Both the position numbers and the translations under genes were made by a program. Positions 8,660 through 36,377 of a stretch of 64,000 nt of DNA are shown here, piece after piece. The notes under the pieces were generated by a model that was given only the letters and a program-made list of their open reading frames with translations, was not told where the DNA came from and did not search any database. The stretch covers positions 1 through 64,000 of the forward strand of contig CAUJJP010000210.1 in assembly GCA_963205525.1 (NCBI GenBank), written 5' to 3'. How positions within the stretch are numbered: position 1 is the stretch's first letter; every line of letters begins with the position of its first letter. This DNA is from Pseudomonadota bacterium (GTDB lineage Bacteria; Pseudomonadota; Gammaproteobacteria; Burkholderiales; Burkholderiaceae).

Positions 8660-10936
8660 TCAGCGCCGACGCGCGCTGCGTATGCCCGGCAGTTGGCGCA
8701 GCTGCGCGAGCGCGCCCTGCAGCACGCGGCCATCGCTCACCTCGACCGTGAAGCACATGCGCGCCAGCCGGCCGCGGCCGCCTTGAACGTCGCGCACCGA
8801 CTGGCTTTGCACGCCGGTGACGTTGAGCTTTTCCTTTGCGAACACCTCGGTGATGTCGCGCAACAGGCCGGGACGGTCGCCCGCCTCGACCAGCACATCC
8901 AGTGGGTACAGCGCCTCGCGCCCGCTGCGTGCGGCGCTGCGCGCCGGTGTGTCCCACGCGACCTCGATCACCCGCCCAGGCGTCGCCTGCGCCATGTGGT
9001 GGAAGTTGCTGCAGTCGCGGCGGTGGATCGCCACCCCGCGCCCGCGCGTCACGAAACCCGCGATCTCGTCCGGCGGCACCGGGCGGCAGCAGCGCGCGAG
9101 GGTGGTGAGCAGCGAATCGATGCCCACCACCAGCACGCCGCCGCCATCGCTGCGCGAGCGCTTCAGCGCCGGCACTTCTCCAGCTGGCGCCGCCGGCTCC
9201 GCCGGCCGCAGCAGCAGCTCAACGTGGCGCAGGGAATACTCGTCCTTGCCCACCACCTCGAACAGCGCATCGGCGCTCTTGAAGCCGAGCTGTTCGGCCA
9301 GCGCGTCCAGCTTGACCGCGGTGCGGCCCTCGCGTTGCAGCAGCTTCTCCACCAGTTCGCGCCCGCGCGCGATGGTCTGGCCCTGCTGCTCGGCGTTGAA
9401 CCAGGCGCGCACCTTGGCGCGCGAGCGCGCGCTCTTCAGGTAGCCGAGTTCGGGGTTGAGCCAGTCGCGCGAGGGGCCACCCTCCTTCGCGCTCACGATC
9501 TCCACCGTCTGCCCGCTGGCCAGGGCCGTGTTCAGAGGCACCAGCGCGCCGTCCACGCGCGCGCCGCGACAGCGGTGGCCCAGGTCACTGTGCAGGTGGT
9601 AGGCGAAGTCCAGCGGCGTGCCGCCCTCGGGCAGCTCGATGATGGTGGCCTGCGGCGTGAAGACGTAGATGCGCGCCTCGAGCGGCTGCACACCGGCGGG
9701 TTCGGACGCGGCCGGTTCAGACACGGCGGGTTCGGCCAGGTCGCGCTCCCAGGCCAGCAGCTGGCGCAGCACGGCCTTGCGCGCCTCGGCGACGCTGTCC
9801 TCGAAGGACCCTGCAGCGCTCACGCCGGCATAGCCCTTGCTGCCCGCCTCCTTGTAGGCCCAGTGGGCGGCGACGCCGAACTCGGCGTGCTCGTGCATGG
9901 CACGGGTGCGGATCTGCACCTCCACCGCGCGTGCATCGTCCATCCTCACCACGGTGTGCAAGGACTGGTAACCGTTGGGCTTGGGGCGCGCGATGTAGTC
10001 GTCGAACTCCTCGGGCAGCGGCGTCCAGCGCGCGTGCACGCGCGCCAGCGCCGCATAGCAGGCCGGCACGTCGTCGACGATCACGCGCAGCGCGCTCAGG
10101 TCGTGCACCTGCGACAACGCCAGGTGCTTGCCCTGCATCTTCTTCCAGATGCTGTACAGGTGCTTGGGGCGGCCGTTCACCTCGGCGCGCAGGCCGCCAG
10201 CGGCCAGCAGATCGGCCAGGGCGTCGCGCGCGTGCTGCACCGCCGCCTCACGCTCGGTGCGCTTCTCGTCGATCTCGCGCGCCAAGCGGTGGTAGTCCTG
10301 CGGCTGCAGGAATCGGAACGCCAGGTCCTCCAGCTCCCACTTGACCTGCCAGATCCCGAGCCGGTTCGCCAGCGGGGCGAAGATCAGCTGCGCCTCGCGC
10401 GCGAGATCGGGCGGGCACTCGCGGCGCGTGGCCGCGATCCAGCGCAGGGTCTGCAGCCGCGACGCCAGCCGCAGCAGCACGACACGCAGGTCGCGCGAAA
10501 ACGCGAGCAGCATCTTGCGCACGCGCTCAAGCTGCTGCTGGCGCTGCGCCTGCGGCAGCTGGGCCTCGCGCGCCGTGCGCTGCAACTGCACCAGCTTGCG
10601 CGTGCCTGCCACAAGCACCGCGTAGGACTCGCCGAAGGCCTTGCCGACCACTTCCTCGGGCCGCGTCAGCCAGTCACCCGCATAGACCAGGTAGGCCGCC
10701 GCCTGCACGCTGGGGGCGGCCCCCAGTTCCGCCAGGATCGCGGCCACGCCTTGGGCATGGGTCCAGGCGTCCTCGCCGCTGTCGAGCACGCGGCCGTCGA
10801 GCAGCGGCTCGGCGAACGCGCGCGCGCGCGCCAGCGCGGCGGCACCGTCCTCTCCCGCACAGGCGCTCGCCGTGTCGGCCCCGGACAGCGTGACGATGGG
10901 CGCTGCCTCGCCGGCCGGCGCGTGGCCTGCTCTCAT
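8660..10936 (-). CDS. relA: RelA, GTP/GDP pyrophosphokinase
   Basis: A 758-residue RelA-type enzyme that makes (p)ppGpp on starved ribosomes. The N-terminal hydrolase-like domain (about 40-190) lacks the His-Asp pair of SpoT, reading AYLVYAGDW where the HD should be, so it should be synthetase-only. The synthetase domain starts near 254 (GRPKHLYSIWKKM), with RPKPNGYQSLHTVV and VEVQIRTRAMHEHAE. A TGS domain starts near 420 (RIYVFTPQ). An ACT domain fills about 680-758. The ATG at 10936 overlaps the stop of the upstream hydrolase gene (ATGA), so the two are translationally coupled. Confidence 0.95.
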   Translation of the reverse strand: MRAGHAPAGEAAPIVTLSGADTASACAGEDGAAALARARAFAEPLLDGRVLDSGEDAWTHAQGVAAILAELGAAPSVQAAAYLVYAGDWLTRPEEVVGKAFGESYAVLVAGTRKLVQLQRTAREAQLPQAQRQQQLERVRKMLLAFSRDLRVVLLRLASRLQTLRWIAATRRECPPDLAREAQLIFAPLANRLGIWQVKWELEDLAFRFLQPQDYHRLAREIDEKRTEREAAVQHARDALADLLAAGGLRAEVNGRPKHLYSIWKKMQGKHLALSQVHDLSALRVIVDDVPACYAALARVHARWTPLPEEFDDYIARPKPNGYQSLHTVVRMDDARAVEVQIRTRAMHEHAEFGVAAHWAYKEAGSKGYAGVSAAGSFEDSVAEARKAVLRQLLAWERDLAEPAVSEPAASEPAGVQPLEARIYVFTPQATIIELPEGGTPLDFAYHLHSDLGHRCRGARVDGALVPLNTALASGQTVEIVSAKEGGPSRDWLNPELGYLKSARSRAKVRAWFNAEQQGQTIARGRELVEKLLQREGRTAVKLDALAEQLGFKSADALFEVVGKDEYSLRHVELLLRPAEPAAPAGEVPALKRSRSDGGGVLVVGIDSLLTTLARCCRPVPPDEIAGFVTRGRGVAIHRRDCSNFHHMAQATPGRVIEVAWDTPARSAARSGREALYPLDVLVEAGDRPGLLRDITEVFAKEKLNVTGVQSQSVRDVQGGRGRLARMCFTVEVSDGRVLQGALAQLRQLPGIRSARRR

Positions 10937-30362: not shown

Positions 30363-31910
30363 TCAGGCGGTCTTGAAGCTGGCCATCGCGGCGCTGAGCT
30401 GGTGCGCCTGCTTGCTCAGGCTCTCGGCGGCGGCGGCGCTCTGCTCCACCAGGGCGGCGTTCTGCTGCGTGCTGCGATCCAGCCCGCTCACCGCCTCGCC
30501 GATCTGGCCCAGGCCCTTGCTCTGCTCGGCGCTGGCGGCGCTGATCTCGTTGATCAGGTCGGCCACCCGGCGCACCTGCTGCACCACCTCGCCCATGCTC
30601 TGCCCGGCCTCGCCGGCCAGGGCGTTGCCGGCCTCGACCTGCTCGATGCTGCCCGAGATCAGCGTCTTGATCTCGCGCGCGGCCTCGGCGCTGCGCTGCG
30701 CCAGGCTTCGCACCTCGCCGGCCACGACCGCGAAGCCGCGCCCCTGCTCGCCGGCACGCGCCGCCTCCACCGCCGCGTTGAGCGCCAGGATGTTGGTCTG
30801 GAAGGCGATCCCGTCGATGGTGCCGATGATGTCGCCGATGCGCCGCGCGCTGCCCGTGATCTGGCCCATGGTGGCGACCATGCGCTCCATGACCTGGCCG
30901 CCGCTCTCCGCCGCGCGCGCCGCGCCGTCGGAGATCTGCACCGCCTGGCGCGCGGTGTCGGCGTTGTGGCGCACGGTGGCGCCGAGCTCCTCGGTCGCGG
31001 CCGAGGTCTGCTCCAGGTTGCTCGCCTGCTCCTCGGTGCGCCGGCTCAGGTCGGCGTTGCCCTGCGCAATCTGGCTGCTGGCGATGGCCACGCTCTGCGC
31101 GTTCTCGCGCGCCGCCGTCACCACGCTGCCCAGCTCCGTGGCCATGCGCTGCAGCGCCGCCAGCAGCTGGCCGGTCTCGTCGCGCCGGCTGGTGTCGAGC
31201 TGCAGGCGCAGGTCACCGGCGGCCACGCTCTCGGTGGCGCTCATCGCCGTGCGCAGCGGCTGCACCACCGAGCGCGTGATGGCCCAGGCCAGCAAGGCAC
31301 CGGCGGCCAGCGCCAGGACGGCAGCGATCAACATCGCCGCGCCGGCAAAGGCGAGATCGGCCTCGAGCTGCTTGACCTCATCCTGGGTCAGCCGGTCCTG
31401 GAACTCGAAGAAGGGGTCGAGCGCGGCCTGGAAGGCCTCCAGCCTGGGCTTGGCCTCCTCCAGCAGGAGCTTGGCGGCCCCCGCCGCATCGCCTTTGGCG
31501 GCGAGCTCCGCGACCTGGTCTATGGTCTGCGCATAGGGCGCGCGCGCGGCCTGCACGGCGGCCAGCAGCTGGCGGCCCTGGGGGTGCTGGACCGTGGCCT
31601 GCAGCTTCTCGAACAGCTCGCCATTGGCCGTCCGGGCGCTGCGGAAGGCCGCGATCTGGGCGCTGCGCGAGCCCTCGTCGGGCGCCAGGATGGCGTTGCG
31701 CGCGCTCAGCGCGATGCGGTCGATGTTGCTGCGCGTCTGGGTCAGGATCTGGTTCTTCGCCATCCGGTCGCCGACCAGCAGCTTGAGCTCCTGGCCGATG
31801 CTGTCCAGCTGCACGCGCGCGAAGACGGCGATCGCGATGCTGAAGGCGATCGTGCTCAGGAAGCCCAGCGCCAGGCGCGGGCCGATGCGAAGACGGGTCA
31901 GGATGTTCAT
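30363..31910 (-). CDS. Methyl-accepting chemotaxis protein
   Basis: A 515-residue transmembrane chemoreceptor. A first membrane helix (about 10-31), a four-helix-bundle periplasmic sensor (about 35-185) and a second helix (about 190-212) precede a HAMP domain. The cytoplasmic signalling hairpin contains [20 protein letters not shown]. There is no C-terminal CheR-docking pentapeptide, as the end is FKTA. Start ATG 31910 begins [13 protein letters not shown], typical for the MCP class with a Tar-like bundle. A sigma-28-type promoter lies upstream. Ligand unknown. Confidence 0.93.
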
Positions 31911-32231
31911 GCGGGGATCCCTGGGAGTTACTGCAGATTCCGGGTCGCCGCGCCAGCCATCGGACGCGCGCCACGCCGGTTCCCTGCCTAGGCTATCGGC
32001 GGCCGCGGCCCGAAGTTGAACGCCAACTGCGGTGCAGCAGGTCGGCGGGGGAATCGGGTTGCGCGCCCATGCGCCGGCACCAGGCGCGCACCGTGTCCGG
32101 TCTGCAGGCCGCAATTCGTCCGTTCCTGCACCGGTCTGCACGAGTCATCAGCCGCGCCCTCCTCTATGCAAACCACACCTGCGGCGCCAGACTGAGGCAC
32201 GCCCGACCAGAAGGCCCGACCGGGAGGCCCG
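31911..32231. other. Divergent intergenic region, chemoreceptor / Ser-Thr kinase
   Basis: 321 bp between the divergent start codons. Besides the sigma-28-type promoter at 31993-32019 I see no convincing sigma-70 promoter for the kinase. The stretch TGCACGAGTCATC near 32133 resembles TGCACGACGATCG near 35878, upstream of a secreted-protein gene; the likeness is weak. Confidence 0.4.
31993..32019 (-). promoter_or_regulatory. Sigma-28 (FliA)-type promoter of the chemoreceptor gene
   Basis: On the minus strand, TCAACTTC (32019-32012), an 11-base spacer, and GCCGATAG (32000-31993). The flagellar consensus is TAAAGTTT-N11-GCCGATAA; the -10 matches in seven of eight bases. It lies about 82 bases before the start codon. 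Confidence 0.65.
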
Positions 32232-34817
32232 ATGCCCTTGTCCGCAAGCGAGATCGCCGCCCTCAGCCGCCTGCTCGACGAAGCGCAGGAGCTTCCCGTC
32301 GGCGGCCTGCAAGCCTGGCTGGACGCGCTGCCTTCGGCGCAGCAGCCGCTGGTGGCGCATCTGCGGCGCGCGCTCGGGTTGACGACGGCGGGACGGATGC
32401 CCAGCCGCCTGCCCCATCTGGTCGAGGCGCAGCTCCCCGACGCACAGGCCGGCGAGCGCATCGGCCCCTACCGGCTGCAGCGCGAGATCGGTCGCGGCGG
32501 CATGGGCGCAGTCTGGCTGGCGCAGCGCGCCGACGGCCTGTACGAGCGCGAGGTGGCGATCAAGCTGCCGCGCCTGACCCACGGGCCCGAGCTGGCCGAG
32601 CGCATGGCGCAGGAGCGACGCATCGGCGCCCAGCTCGAGCACCCGCACATCGCGCGCCTGTACGACGCCGGCATCGCCGCCGACGGCCGGCCCTACCTGG
32701 TGCTGGAGCTGGTGCGCGGCCAGCCGCTGCTGGAGCACGCGCGCACGCTGGACCGGCCCGCCCGGCTGCAGCTCATGCTGCAGGCCTGCAGCGCGGTGGC
32801 ACACGCACACCGGCAGGCGGTGGTGCACCGCGACATCAAGCCCTCCAACCTGATGGTCGACCGCCAGGGCCAGCTCAAGCTGTTGGACTTCGGCATCGCA
32901 CGCCTGCTCGATCAGGACGGACAGGCGGGTGCGAGCGGCGACGGGCGACCGACCCATACCCCGGGCTACGCGGCGCCGGAGCAGCTGCGCCAGCTGCCCG
33001 CCACCACCGCCTGCGACATCTACGCGCTCGGCGTGGTATGTCACGAACTTCTGAGCGGCCAGCGCACGCCGGACGAGGCCAGCCTGGCGGCGCTGGGCCG
33101 CGACGCCGCCGCCATCGTGCGCCGTGCCACCCAGCCGCGCCCGCAGGACCGCTACCCGACCGTCGAGCACCTGGCCGAGGACCTGCGCTGCCTGCTCGCG
33201 CAGCGTCCGCCGGTCAGCGACCCCGGACCCTGGACGCACCGGCTCGCGCTGACGCTGCGGCGCAGGCGCTGGAGCGCGGGCGTTGGCGCCCTGGCGACCC
33301 TGGCGCTGGTGGCCGGCGGCGTCCTGTGGTGGCAGCAGCAGCTCGCCCTGCGCCGGGAGACGCAGCGCAGCCTGCAGGCGCGCGAGTACGTGTCGGACGT
33401 GCTGGAGGCGATCGAGCCCATGGAGGGGCAGGAGCCCGGCACCGTCACCGGCCGCCAGATCCTGGACTCGGCACGGCAGTCGGCGCGCAACGCGTTCGCG
33501 CAGCAGCCGGTGCTGCACGGCCAGATCCTGGTCAGCCTGGGCATCATGTTCCGCCGCTTCGCCGCCCACGAGCAGACCCTGGCCGTGCTGCGCGAAGGCG
33601 AGGCCCTGCTTGCCGCCCACACCGCGGCCGACGACCCCGAGCTGGCGCGCGCGCGCGGCCAGCTCGCGCACGAGCGCATGCAGCAGGGTGACCCCGACCA
33701 CGCCGGCATCGCGCGCCAGGCGCAGGCCGCGATCGACGCCTGCCGCGGCGACGCGCGCCGCTGTGCGCGTGCCGAGCTGTATGCGCGCCAGGCCTTGCGC
33801 AGCCTGGCGCAGCAGGGTGGCGACATCGGTGCGGCGATCGCCCAGTCCGAGGCCGCGGTCGGCGCCGCCGAGCGCGCTTTCGGTACGCGCCATTTCGAGG
33901 TCTTGATCGAGAAGCTGCAGCTCGCGATCACCTACCGCAACGGCGGCCGCCTGGCACCGGCGATGCAGGTCCTGGACGCGATCCGCGAGCCTGCCGCTGC
34001 CGCCAGCCTGCACAGCGGCGACCGCGTCCAGTTCCAGCTCTGGGACGCCGTGCTGCTGGCCGATTCCGGCCGCCACCTGCAAGCCATCGCCGCCCTGGAC
34101 CGAATGCTGCAGAACCTGGCCACGCCGCCGATGAAGCCGACCCTGCTGCGCATGCGCGCGCGCTCGCGCCACCAGCTCGGACAGTGGGCGGCGGCGCTGG
34201 AGGACGCCCGCCAGGCGTTGCTGGCCGGCCCAGGCCGCCCCGCGGAGCTCGCCTTCTCGCGCCAGGCCCAGGCACACGCGCTCGCGCGCAGCGGCAGCGC
34301 GCACGCCGCCCTGGCCGAGCTGCAGGCGGTGGACGCGGACCTGCAGGCCATGGGCATGGCGCAGACCAGTGTCGAGAGGCTGCGCGCCGGCCGGCTGCTT
34401 GCCGAAGCCATGCTGCTGGCCGGCGACGATGGCGCTGCGGCAGCGCAGCTCGAGCGCATGCGCGCACTGCACCAGGCGCCCGCCGCCGCGCCGCGATCGG
34501 GGTCGGCGGCGCCGGTCGCGGCGCTGGACTACGCCCAGTTGCTGCAGCTGCAGGCCACGCTGGCGCGGCGCCGCGGCGACCTTGCAGCCGCCACCGCCTT
34601 GCTCAAGCAGGCGAGCCCCTGGCTGGCGGAACTGCCGTCGACCCACCCCTGGCGGCGCCGGCAGGCGGTGGAGCTGGCCCTGGCCAACGACGACCCACAG
34701 GCCCTGCGGCAAGCCGTCCAGGCCTGGATCGCGGAGCTGCCGGCCGACTCCGGCCTGCGCAGCACGCTGCAAACCCTGCCGGACGACCCGCAAGGCAGGC
34801 GATTCACCGTGCTCTGA
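32232..34817 (+). CDS. Transmembrane Ser/Thr protein kinase with TPR-like sensor
   Basis: An 861-residue PknB-type kinase. An N-terminal helical lead (1-~75) precedes the kinase domain (about 78-340): GRGGMGAVW loop at 87, Lys111, HRDIKPSN with Asp201, DFG at 219, and APEQL. A membrane helix spans about 349-367. The remaining ~490 residues form alpha-helical TPR-like repeats, likely periplasmic. It heads a unit with a small secreted protein 20 bp downstream. A convergent ECF sigma gene follows. Kinase-ECF pairs of the TIGR02999/ECF43 type, where the kinase phosphorylates and activates the sigma factor, are known from Xanthomonas and Vibrio. Confidence 0.9.
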   Translation: MPLSASEIAALSRLLDEAQELPVGGLQAWLDALPSAQQPLVAHLRRALGLTTAGRMPSRLPHLVEAQLPDAQAGERIGPYRLQREIGRGGMGAVWLAQRADGLYEREVAIKLPRLTHGPELAERMAQERRIGAQLEHPHIARLYDAGIAADGRPYLVLELVRGQPLLEHARTLDRPARLQLMLQACSAVAHAHRQAVVHRDIKPSNLMVDRQGQLKLLDFGIARLLDQDGQAGASGDGRPTHTPGYAAPEQLRQLPATTACDIYALGVVCHELLSGQRTPDEASLAALGRDAAAIVRRATQPRPQDRYPTVEHLAEDLRCLLAQRPPVSDPGPWTHRLALTLRRRRWSAGVGALATLALVAGGVLWWQQQLALRRETQRSLQAREYVSDVLEAIEPMEGQEPGTVTGRQILDSARQSARNAFAQQPVLHGQILVSLGIMFRRFAAHEQTLAVLREGEALLAAHTAADDPELARARGQLAHERMQQGDPDHAGIARQAQAAIDACRGDARRCARAELYARQALRSLAQQGGDIGAAIAQSEAAVGAAERAFGTRHFEVLIEKLQLAITYRNGGRLAPAMQVLDAIREPAAAASLHSGDRVQFQLWDAVLLADSGRHLQAIAALDRMLQNLATPPMKPTLLRMRARSRHQLGQWAAALEDARQALLAGPGRPAELAFSRQAQAHALARSGSAHAALAELQAVDADLQAMGMAQTSVERLRAGRLLAEAMLLAGDDGAAAAQLERMRALHQAPAAAPRSGSAAPVAALDYAQLLQLQATLARRRGDLAAATALLKQASPWLAELPSTHPWRRRQAVELALANDDPQALRQAVQAWIAELPADSGLRSTLQTLPDDPQGRRFTVL

Positions 34818-34837
34818 CCGTGCAAAGGACATCGCTC

Positions 34838-35242
34838 ATGAACGTCTTCTCATCGCACCCTGCGCGCCTGTGGCTCGCCAGCGCCGGCCTGCTGCTGGCC
34901 ATGTCCGCTGCGGCACAACCGAACCTGGCCGCGCCCGGCATGCCGCGCGTGCCCGCCACACCCGCACTGCCTCAGCCGCCGCAGTTCGACCTGCGGCAGC
35001 TCATCGATCTGCTGCAAAACCTGGAAGGCAAGCCGCTGCCGTTCGAGATCGAGATCAGGCTGCGGCTGCGCTGCGCCGGCGCGCTGTGCCGGGAGGTCCA
35101 GATCCCGAATACCCTGGGCGTCGACCCGAACCGCTGGGAAGACCCGGTCTGCGCGCGCAGGCGCCAGGCTTGCGCGAGGCTGGGGGACGGCAACGATGCC
35201 GCCCAGCGCTGCTTGGAGGCGCTGCCGCCACCCTGCCGTTGA
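34838..35242 (+). CDS. Small secreted cysteine-patterned protein, copy 1
   Basis: A 134-residue protein with a signal peptide (about 1-24, ending MSAAAQ). The mature part is proline-rich, then carries six cysteines: C-x4-C followed by VQIP, then C-x6-C and two more. The same layout (PF.I/L..L..C-x4-C..VQIP...DPN...C-x6-C) appears in the protein at 35964, so they are paralogues. No known domain recognised. It lies 20 bp after the kinase gene with AAAGGA upstream, so it should be co-expressed with it. A periplasmic ligand or partner of the kinase sensor region is possible. Confidence 0.8.
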   Translation: MNVFSSHPARLWLASAGLLLAMSAAAQPNLAAPGMPRVPATPALPQPPQFDLRQLIDLLQNLEGKPLPFEIEIRLRLRCAGALCREVQIPNTLGVDPNRWEDPVCARRRQACARLGDGNDAAQRCLEALPPPCR

Positions 35243-35258
35243 CACCGCAGGTCCGTGC

Positions 35259-35825
35259 TCAACCCGGCAGCAAGGCGGCCAGCAGCCTGGCGGCCTTGGC
35301 CAGGTCGCGGCGCACGGTGCGCTCGTCGACACCCAGGGTCTCGGCGATCAAGGCCTCGGCGTAGCCGCCGAAAAAGCGCATCTGGACGGCAGCGGCGAGC
35401 CGCGGCTCGGCCTCGGCCAGGCGCTGCAGCGCGTCGTGCAGCTCGAGCACGTCCTGCCCCTCGTCGGCGGCCAGCCGATCGCCCAGCTCGGTGTCCAGGG
35501 GCAGATGGGGCGCGTCGCCACCGCGGCGCTGGGCCCGGCGCTCGCGCAGCAGGTCGACGATCACCGAGCGCATGACGCGCGACGCGTAGTCGAAGAAGGC
35601 GCGCCGGTGCTCGGCGCGCAGGCTGGCGCTGCGCTGGATGCGCTCGAAGGTCTCGTGCACCAGCGAGGTGGTCTCCAGCAGGGTGGCGCGCCCGCCCTCG
35701 TGCAGCCGGGCGTGCGCCAGCCGCTTGAGCTCCGGGTAGGCGGTGGCGAACAACTCCTCGCGCGCCGATGCGTCGCCAGCGTTCAGCCGCGCGAACAGCG
35801 CGTCCAGGGCATCGGGAGCAGACAT
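35259..35825 (-). CDS. ECF sigma factor (TIGR02999/ECF43-like)
   Basis: A 188-residue sigma factor. Region 2 includes LLETTSLVHETFERI and FFDYASRVMRSVIVDLLRERRAQRRGG, and region 4 YAEALIAETLGVDERTVRRDLAKAARLL. The layout matches the sigma group that accompanies Ser/Thr kinases rather than an anti-sigma factor, and none is encoded nearby. In Vibrio and Xanthomonas members a Thr near the equivalent of TTSLVHE is phosphorylated to let the sigma bind RNA polymerase. I chose ATG 35825, as a longer start adds 20 unlike residues. It is convergent with the kinase unit (16 bp) and divergent from the second cysteine protein. Confidence 0.88.
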   Translation of the reverse strand: MSAPDALDALFARLNAGDASAREELFATAYPELKRLAHARLHEGGRATLLETTSLVHETFERIQRSASLRAEHRRAFFDYASRVMRSVIVDLLRERRAQRRGGDAPHLPLDTELGDRLAADEGQDVLELHDALQRLAEAEPRLAAAVQMRFFGGYAEALIAETLGVDERTVRRDLAKAARLLAALLPG

Positions 35826-35963
35826 CGCGCCGGGATCGTAGCGGCGTGGCGGCCGGCTGACCAGGCGTTGGCCGCTGCAGTGCACGACGATCGCCCGTGT
35901 GCTGTACTCGCCCGGCGTCGTGCGCGCGAGATGCCCGGCGCCTGCAAACGGAGGAAACCCAGC

Positions 35964-36377
35964 ATGCGCATGCGTTCACTGCAACACGCCACCGTCGCGC
36001 TGGCGCTGACGGCCGGCACGCTGGCCGGCGCCCAGACGCCAGCCGCGCCAGCCGCGCCACCGGCCCCGCCGGCGACGCAGACCGCGATCGGGGCACGGAC
36101 CCAGGATGCCGCACTCGAGCAGTTCTTCCAGCAGGTCGAAGTGCTCAGGCGCATGGGCATGCCGTTCAAGCTCAGCCTGCAGGCCGAGCTGATGTGCGGC
36201 CGCGGTCCCTGCGTGACGGTGCAGATTCCGAGCGAGGGCCGGCTGCCGATCGACCCCAACGCCCAGATCGACTTTCCGCGCCTGGGTTGCGAACGCAGGC
36301 TCGCACAGTGCAAGGCGCAGCGCTGCGCCGACCTGGGGGCTGAAGCCTGCGCCAAGGTCTGCCCGTCCTGCGACTGA
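35964..36377 (+). CDS. Small secreted cysteine-patterned protein, copy 2
   Basis: A 137-residue protein with a signal peptide (about 1-23, ALTAGTLAGAQ) and an Ala/Pro-rich lead, then eight cysteines: C-x4-C with VQIP, C-x6-C, and four more near the end. It is a paralogue of the protein at 34838 (see that entry for the shared pattern). GGAGG lies 9 bases before the ATG. It is divergent from the ECF sigma gene, so the 138-bp gap may hold a sigma-controlled promoter for both. Function unknown. Confidence 0.8.
   Translation: MRMRSLQHATVALALTAGTLAGAQTPAAPAAPPAPPATQTAIGARTQDAALEQFFQQVEVLRRMGMPFKLSLQAELMCGRGPCVTVQIPSEGRLPIDPNAQIDFPRLGCERRLAQCKAQRCADLGAEACAKVCPSCD

What the first reader, a model, noticed from the sequence alone, without database searches (positions are those of the whole stretch)
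32232..36377. Kinase / ECF sigma / secreted cysteine protein cluster
Seen: a transmembrane PknB-like kinase with a TPR-like sensor, a TIGR02999-like sigma with a TTSLVHE segment and no anti-sigma gene, and two secreted proteins. Known: in Vibrio and Xanthomonas such kinases activate ECF43-type sigma factors by Thr phosphorylation. Inference: the two secreted proteins are ligands, targets or regulon members of a new version of this system.
Basis: partly seen in the sequence, partly recalled or inferred. Interest (0 to 1): 0.75.

Follow-up and report, generated by a model that had tools for sequence, protein, structure and literature searches.

The report
Kinase-sigma switch with hypervariable secreted partner
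This is a bacterial membrane switch in which a sensor enzyme most likely turns on a gene-control protein by phosphorylating it, with an unusual extra gene for a small, fast-changing secreted protein that may be what the sensor feels.

Summary
The four genes are real and at the stated coordinates. The kinase is PknS-like (best solved-structure match 9EED, X. citri PknS), with a predicted TPR-like periplasmic sensor. The sigma passes TIGR02999 and has the ECF43-type Thr53 (motif ETTS). Kinase-to-sigma phosphorylation is the published ECF43 mechanism, inferred here. New: the two secreted proteins are paralogs of an orphan Cys-rich family. SecA homologs lie in the same convergent slot (kinase>sec><sigma) in two other genomes; small exported genes without detectable similarity fill that slot, 15-34 nt behind kinases with the same sensor, in three more. 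The slot is filled in 6 of 7 sensor-family loci with a sigma nearby and 0 of 4 without. SecB was found in none of the other loci. Between two sister genomes (91% identical DNA) the first 70% of the sec gene is only 61% identical, with sharp edges. Best reading: a periplasmic ligand or inhibitor of the sensor; main rival: a co-transcribed output protein. Verdict: new variant of the ECF43 kinase-sigma system; action of SecA on the kinase is unproven.

The parts
32232..34817 (+). Transmembrane Hanks-type Ser/Thr kinase, PknS-like (861 aa)
   Evidence: PF00069 E 1.1e-39; best PDB sequence match 9EED = PknS 1-364; 49% identical to the L001 kinase over 870 columns
32469..33074 (+). Kinase domain (residues 80-281)
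   Evidence: Pfam; residues K111, D201 and D219 lie in columns invariant in 26 kinases; their catalytic role is recalled
33273..33332 (+). Transmembrane segment (about residues 348-367)
   Evidence: by eye on the sequence printed; within helix 346-392 of the model
33429..34775 (+). Periplasmic TPR-like helical sensor (about residues 400-848)
   Evidence: AlphaFold2 model
33741..33764 (+). Cys504 to Cys511 pair, the only two Cys beyond the membrane segment
   Evidence: present in 10 of 10 sensor-family rows that cover it; C-x(3-8)-C also in 9 other kinases of 71
34838..35242 (+). SecA, small exported Cys-rich protein (134 aa), starting 21 nt after the kinase stop codon
   Evidence: signal-peptide rule; homologs in the same slot in L001 and L098/G126
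35259..35825 (-). ECF43-type sigma factor (188 aa), convergent with SecA
   Evidence: TIGR02999 143.3 bits, PF07638; length equal to P0003
35664..35675 (-). Region 2.2 motif E51-T52-T53-S54 in place of DAED; Thr53 is the expected phosphosite
   Evidence: alignment of 85 sigmas, Thr at this position in 78; motif position from PMC8999054 and PMC8103513
35490..35492 (-). Linker Thr112, candidate second phosphosite
   Evidence: Thr in 68 of 85 sigmas; linker sites reported for EcfK, but EcfK itself was not aligned here
35964..36377 (+). SecB, paralog of SecA (137 aa), divergent from the sigma
   Evidence: BLASTP E 5e-6 to SecA; a 134-aa near relative P0002 in the protein collection; no counterpart seen in other loci

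Best explanation
A membrane switch of the ECF43 kind with an added periplasmic component. The sigma is inactive until the transmembrane kinase phosphorylates Thr53 (perhaps also Thr112), which gives it the charge it needs to bind RNA polymerase [published for EcfP/PknT and EcfK/PknS; inferred here]. SecA is made from the same transcript as the kinase [inferred from the 21-nt spacing], exported and held together by disulfides in the periplasm [inferred]. There it binds the TPR-like sensor as an inhibitor or ligand [inferred], much as CpxP serves CpxA (recalled analogy). SecB is a duplicate, perhaps an output under sigma control. The block-wise change of the secreted protein suggests that it faces something variable outside the cell. 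Shown: the genes, the fold class of the sensor, the homology of SecA and SecB, the recurring slot, the hypervariable block in one genome pair. Not shown: phosphorylation, export, binding, regulon.
For: Kinase. Sigma. Slot filled in 6 of 7 sensor-family loci that have a sigma within the fetched region and in 0 of 4 without. Small exported ORF within -20..+40 of the stop after 5 of 58 kinases, all five of the window's sensor family, against 2 of 329 other genes. SecA-family matches in 399 family genomes: the two convincing ones, G001 and G126, both sit at the kinase. Fast change of the sec gene: dN/dS 0.64 against 0.09 (sigma) and 0.28 (kinase end); local hypervariability.
Against: No binding or expression data. 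G337 has kinase and sigma but no slot gene, and the G138 sigma lacks the Thr motif (SAIT), so the third gene is not essential to all such switches and one slot locus may work otherwise. The slot proteins of G214, G004 and G138 are not detectably homologous to SecA. SecB has no counterpart elsewhere. The 5-of-58 control used limits set after the first cases were seen. The hypervariable block includes the signal peptide and shows raised synonymous change, so it speaks for recombination more than for selection at an interface. The SecA model is too poor to support a fold.
Confidence: 0.45

Rival explanations
1. SecA and SecB are outputs: exported effector or defence proteins co-transcribed with the kinase or made under sigma control, without any action on the kinase. 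The kinase-sigma pair is an ordinary ECF43 switch and the secreted genes are its local regulon.
For: SecB has its own start beside the sigma and is not next to the kinase. Other ECF43 loci also have exported proteins further downstream of the kinase, e.g. L013 and L017 at +136 and +132. X. citri EcfK drives an output locus (T6SS) lying next to it (PMC8999054). Fast change also fits secreted effectors.
Against: The slot is tight (15-34 nt) and was found behind one sensor family only; outputs of a common switch would be expected behind other ECF43 kinases in the same way.
Confidence: 0.35
2. The secreted genes are incidental: fast-turnover orphan genes that happen to sit behind the kinase, without a role in the switch.
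For: Tiny family (4 protein clusters found); SecB not seen elsewhere; slot proteins of three genomes not detectably alike.
Against: Same slot in six loci; in L001 and G126 reading frame and four cysteines are kept although the DNA is 61% identical there; background rate 2 of 329.
Confidence: 0.15

Closest known systems
PknS-EcfK of Xanthomonas citri (ECF43)
   Same: Membrane Hanks-type kinase with N-terminal extension, kinase domain, one membrane segment and a TPR-rich periplasmic region, paired with an ECF43 sigma and no anti-sigma; 9EED is the best PDB sequence match
   Different: The passages and sections read of PMC13147305 describe no small exported partner; EcfK motif is QATE, here ETTS; PknS lies in a T6SS cluster, and none of the genes I scanned beside the window pair is a T6SS gene (the window as a whole was not annotated)
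EcfP-PknT of Vibrio parahaemolyticus (ECF43)
   Same: Thr in region 2.2 at the position phosphorylated in EcfP (STTA; reviews)
   Different: The window keeps an acidic residue at the first motif position; no exported third gene is mentioned in the review passages read; the primary paper was not seen
CpxA-CpxP (recalled; analogy only)
   Same: Small exported protein encoded beside a membrane kinase with a periplasmic sensor
   Different: CpxA is a histidine kinase; no sequence relation was tested or is claimed. A guess at how it may work, not a membership claim

Membership tests
ECF43 sigma factors | TIGR02999 / PF07638 type sigma | tested here: met
   TIGR02999 143.3 bits, cut-off 126.15; PF07638 118.2 bits, cut-off 21.1. 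The ECF43 model of the ECF classification itself was not available.
ECF43 sigma factors | Hanks-type kinase gene as neighbour, no anti-sigma | tested here: met
   Kinase 32232-34817; the two flanking genes scanned are not anti-sigma
ECF43 sigma factors | DAED of region 2.2 replaced, Thr at the EcfK T51 / EcfP position | tested here: met
   ETTS; Thr53. One acid (E51) is kept
ECF43 sigma factors | Activation by phosphorylation of that Thr | not testable with these tools
   needs biochemistry
PknS-like receptor kinase | N-terminal extension, kinase domain, one membrane segment, TPR periplasmic region | tested here: met
   9EED match from residue 4 on; model with solenoid; no Pfam TPR hit
SecA family (new, orphan) | Four conserved Cys, Pro-Phe before the first pair, signal peptide | tested here: met
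   SecA, SecB, L001 gene, P0001, P0002, P0123 (identical to the G126 gene), P0124
SecA family (new, orphan) | Slot genes of G214, G004 and G138 as sequence members | tested here: not met

The most novel reading that the evidence does not exclude
A receptor kinase with a co-encoded, recombining, hypervariable secreted ligand: the kinase reads the allele or the fate of its own secreted protein (self or kin recognition, or decoy sensing of predators, phages or competitors) and answers through an ECF43 sigma.
Probability: 0.13. Interest if true: 0.85.

Novelty: new variant of a known kind. Interest (0 to 1): 0.55.

Why it matters
What ECF43-linked kinases sense is open: the Discussion of PMC13147305 leaves the activation of PknS through its periplasmic region to future studies. 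A small exported protein placed right behind one class of TPR sensor is a concrete candidate for the signal or its gatekeeper and makes the question testable with three genes. Its localized hypervariability, if it holds in more genomes, points to recognition of something variable outside the cell.

Tried and rejected
(1) Finding SecA/SecB by protein search: 2 proteins with the two window sequences, 4 with the enlarged alignment (only the 7991 candidates sharing most words were scored). Useful mainly to show how small the family is. (2) L006 as a SecB relative (E 0.0014): dropped; it recruited nothing and looks to me like a chance frame. (3) SecA profile in genomes: 5 of 300 order genomes matched, G001 convincing, four others E 0.0015-0.0067; 14 of 399 family genomes, G001 and G126 convincing, 12 partial ones at E 6.6e-5 to 0.008 set aside without further study; 10-14 candidates per genome were scored. 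(4) Promoter and terminator scan: none found; upstream regions were printed and read by eye only, no shared ECF motif is claimed. (5) SecA structure: pLDDT 62, pTM 0.29, not searched further. (6) The sensor Cys pair as a mark of the secreted partner: rejected, it is also in sensor-family kinases without a slot gene and C-x(3-8)-C is in 9 other kinases; the strict pattern was mis-written and its zero means nothing. (7) L012 7707-8045 as a SecB counterpart: not above chance in the profile test (against SecA alone 6 of 1000 shuffles scored as high). (8) The loose scan gave a candidate after 29 of 74 kinases, many of them spurious or more than 100 nt away; one search uses tighter limits set after seeing the first cases, takes ATG starts only, and leaves out G126, whose kinase is cut by the contig end. 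L090 (G404) had a GTG candidate at +69, not counted as a slot gene. (9) The careful kinase tree did not finish; the quick one was used. (10) A class-wide genome search did not complete.

Full report
What is there. The window holds, on the + strand, a transmembrane Ser/Thr kinase (32232-34817, 861 aa) and, starting 21 nt after it, a small exported protein SecA (34838-35242). On the opposite strand, convergent with them, lies an ECF sigma (35259-35825); beyond it a second small exported protein, SecB (35964-36377, +). SecA and SecB are paralogs. Neither matches a Pfam or NCBIfam family. The two flanking genes scanned are a chemotaxis receptor and an alpha/beta hydrolase; neither is an anti-sigma. 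No whole genome is held for the window.

Kinase. PF00069 covers residues 80-281. The best sequence match in the PDB is 9EED (E 4.2e-41, residues 4-277), which PMC13147305 names as its PknS structure. AlphaFold2 on 26 kinases gives mean pLDDT 85.7 and a C-terminal run of about 22 helices. PMC13147305 reports TPRs in the periplasmic region of PknS as well, so a TPR sensor is not new. Against the L001 kinase the kinase domain is 71% identical and the sensor 42%.

Sigma. TIGR02999 143.3 bits, cut-off 126.15. The DAED motif of region 2.2 reads E-T-T-S. The reviews PMC8999054 and PMC8103513 (passages read) give STTA for EcfP with the second Thr phosphorylated; that position is Thr53 here. In 85 aligned sigmas (window, one from each of the 80 loci, and L096, L097, L098, L124) Thr stands there in 78, and the motif ETTS occurs in 4. 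PMC13147305 adds linker phosphosites in EcfK; Thr112 here is a candidate (Thr in 68 of 85), but EcfK itself was not aligned.

Is the secreted gene part of the system? A genome scan with the sigma alone gave no relative; one with an alignment of 31 sigmas gave 80 loci. In L001 (a Burkholderiaceae MAG) a SecA homolog (E 1.9e-10) lies in the same convergent slot. A search with the kinase sensor matched 10 of 399 genomes of the family of G004 (3 candidates per genome scored). With wider stretches: G001 and G126 have kinase>SecA-homolog><sigma; G214 has kinase>122-aa exported protein><sigma; G004 has kinase>135-aa exported protein, then a DUF418 gene, then the sigma; G138 has sigma>kinase>136-140-aa exported protein; G337 has sigma>kinase and no such gene; G013, G162, G284 and G404 have neither in the 14-17 kb read (sigma sought by tblastn at E 1e-5). 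So the slot is filled in 6 of 7 loci with a sigma (window included) and 0 of 4 without; by hand and post hoc the hypergeometric chance is 7/462, about 0.015. The kinase of G126 is known only by its last 185 residues, and G284 and G404 are short kinases. Genus searches with the sensor profile matched 1 of 5, 3 of 21 and 2 of 5 genomes, all known before; an order-wide draw matched 1 of 399, G138 itself (3 candidates per genome scored).

Control. A small exported ORF (90-160 aa, ATG within -20..+40 of the stop, signal peptide by a home-made rule, no second membrane segment) follows 5 of 58 kinases and 2 of 329 other long genes in the same loci; the five are window, L001, L012 (G004), L096 (G138) and L097 (G214). 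The limits were set after the first cases were known. The quick kinase-domain tree of 76 rows puts window, L001, L012 and L084 (G214) in one supported set with L088 (G337) and L089 (G284), but L085 (G138) with G013 and G162 (careful search unfinished). The slot gene thus follows the sensor type rather than one kinase-domain lineage, and not perfectly.

Homology of the slot genes. SecA, SecB and the genes of G001 and G126 form one family with four cysteines invariant in the seven sequences of A7. Those of G214, G004 and G138 cannot be told from shuffled sequence against SecA or from decoys with the family profile: extreme divergence or replacement. SecA-family proteins are otherwise rare: 4 clusters in a search of 5.8 billion proteins (limited to relatives sharing short words), and among 399 family genomes only G001 and G126 are convincing.

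Hypervariability. Over about 3.5 kb, G001 and G126 DNA is 91.4% identical outside a 252-bp stretch that is 61% identical (L001 2700-2951). That stretch codes for the signal peptide and the first part of the mature secreted protein. Its edges lie within about 60 bp: the kinase end and the last third of the sec gene are as alike as the surroundings. Of 69 windows of 100 columns 7 are under 75%: five in this stretch and two at L001 601-739, an intergenic piece and the end of the next gene. Synonymous divergence is 0.84 (signal peptide) and 0.66 (first mature part) against 0.05 in the C-terminal part (only 22 synonymous sites), 0.29 in the sigma and 0.26 in the kinase end; dN/dS is 0.64 for the gene, 0.09 for the sigma, 0.28 for the kinase end. 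Raised synonymous change points to import of a diverged block by recombination, not only to selection on amino acids. The G126 protein equals P0123, a cluster of 5 sequences on 7 contigs, which speaks against an assembly fault on that side; the L001 version rests on one MAG. This is one genome pair.

Mechanism. Kinase phosphorylates sigma on Thr53: inferred from family, motif and pairing; I hold it likely (about 0.85). SecA as periplasmic ligand or inhibitor of the sensor: inferred from operon-like position, link to one sensor type and rapid change (about 0.45). SecB as duplicate, possibly sigma-controlled: weak. The main rival is that both are outputs.

Novelty. The kinase-sigma pair is known (ECF43). 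No exported third gene is mentioned in what I read of PMC13147305 (abstract, passages, Discussion in full), PMC8999054 (passages) and PMC8103513 (passages). Searches of the held library for ECF43 (6 papers), for TIGR02999 or kinase (5 of 342 listed, none with TIGR02999), and for kinase, TPR, periplasmic and small secreted protein (3 papers) showed no such report in their listings. The primary EcfP paper was not found in the library and the 2021 ECF classification is not held, so a mention there is not excluded.

Noticed in passing
L012:7707-8045 (+): A second small exported protein (112 aa, two Cys in the mature part) lies just behind the sigma in Ideonella sp. A 288; not detectably homologous to SecB or the SecA profile.
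   Followed up: partly
L013 (+136 nt behind the kinase) and L043 (behind the ORF ending at 10149): Two exported proteins of 157-166 aa that look alike by eye (AAHALD..C......AAEKSA.QPARH) lie near ECF43 kinases of other lineages: a possible second class of exported partner or output.
   Followed up: no
L127 (G284) and L128 (G404): Short kinases (about 520-540 aa) whose sensor ends shortly after the conserved Cys pair; no sigma found nearby.
   Followed up: partly
L125 (G013) and L126 (G162): Sensor-family kinases without a sigma in 17 kb, followed by the same two conserved small genes in both genomes: the sensor may work without a sigma.
   Followed up: partly
L096:7604-8083 (+): The sigma before the G138 kinase is only 33% identical and has SAIT at the motif, so a kinase-linked sigma without the known phosphosite Thr.
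   Followed up: partly
window 30363-32141 (-): A methyl-accepting chemotaxis protein (4HB_MCP_1, HAMP, MCPsignal) is divergent from the kinase gene.
   Followed up: no
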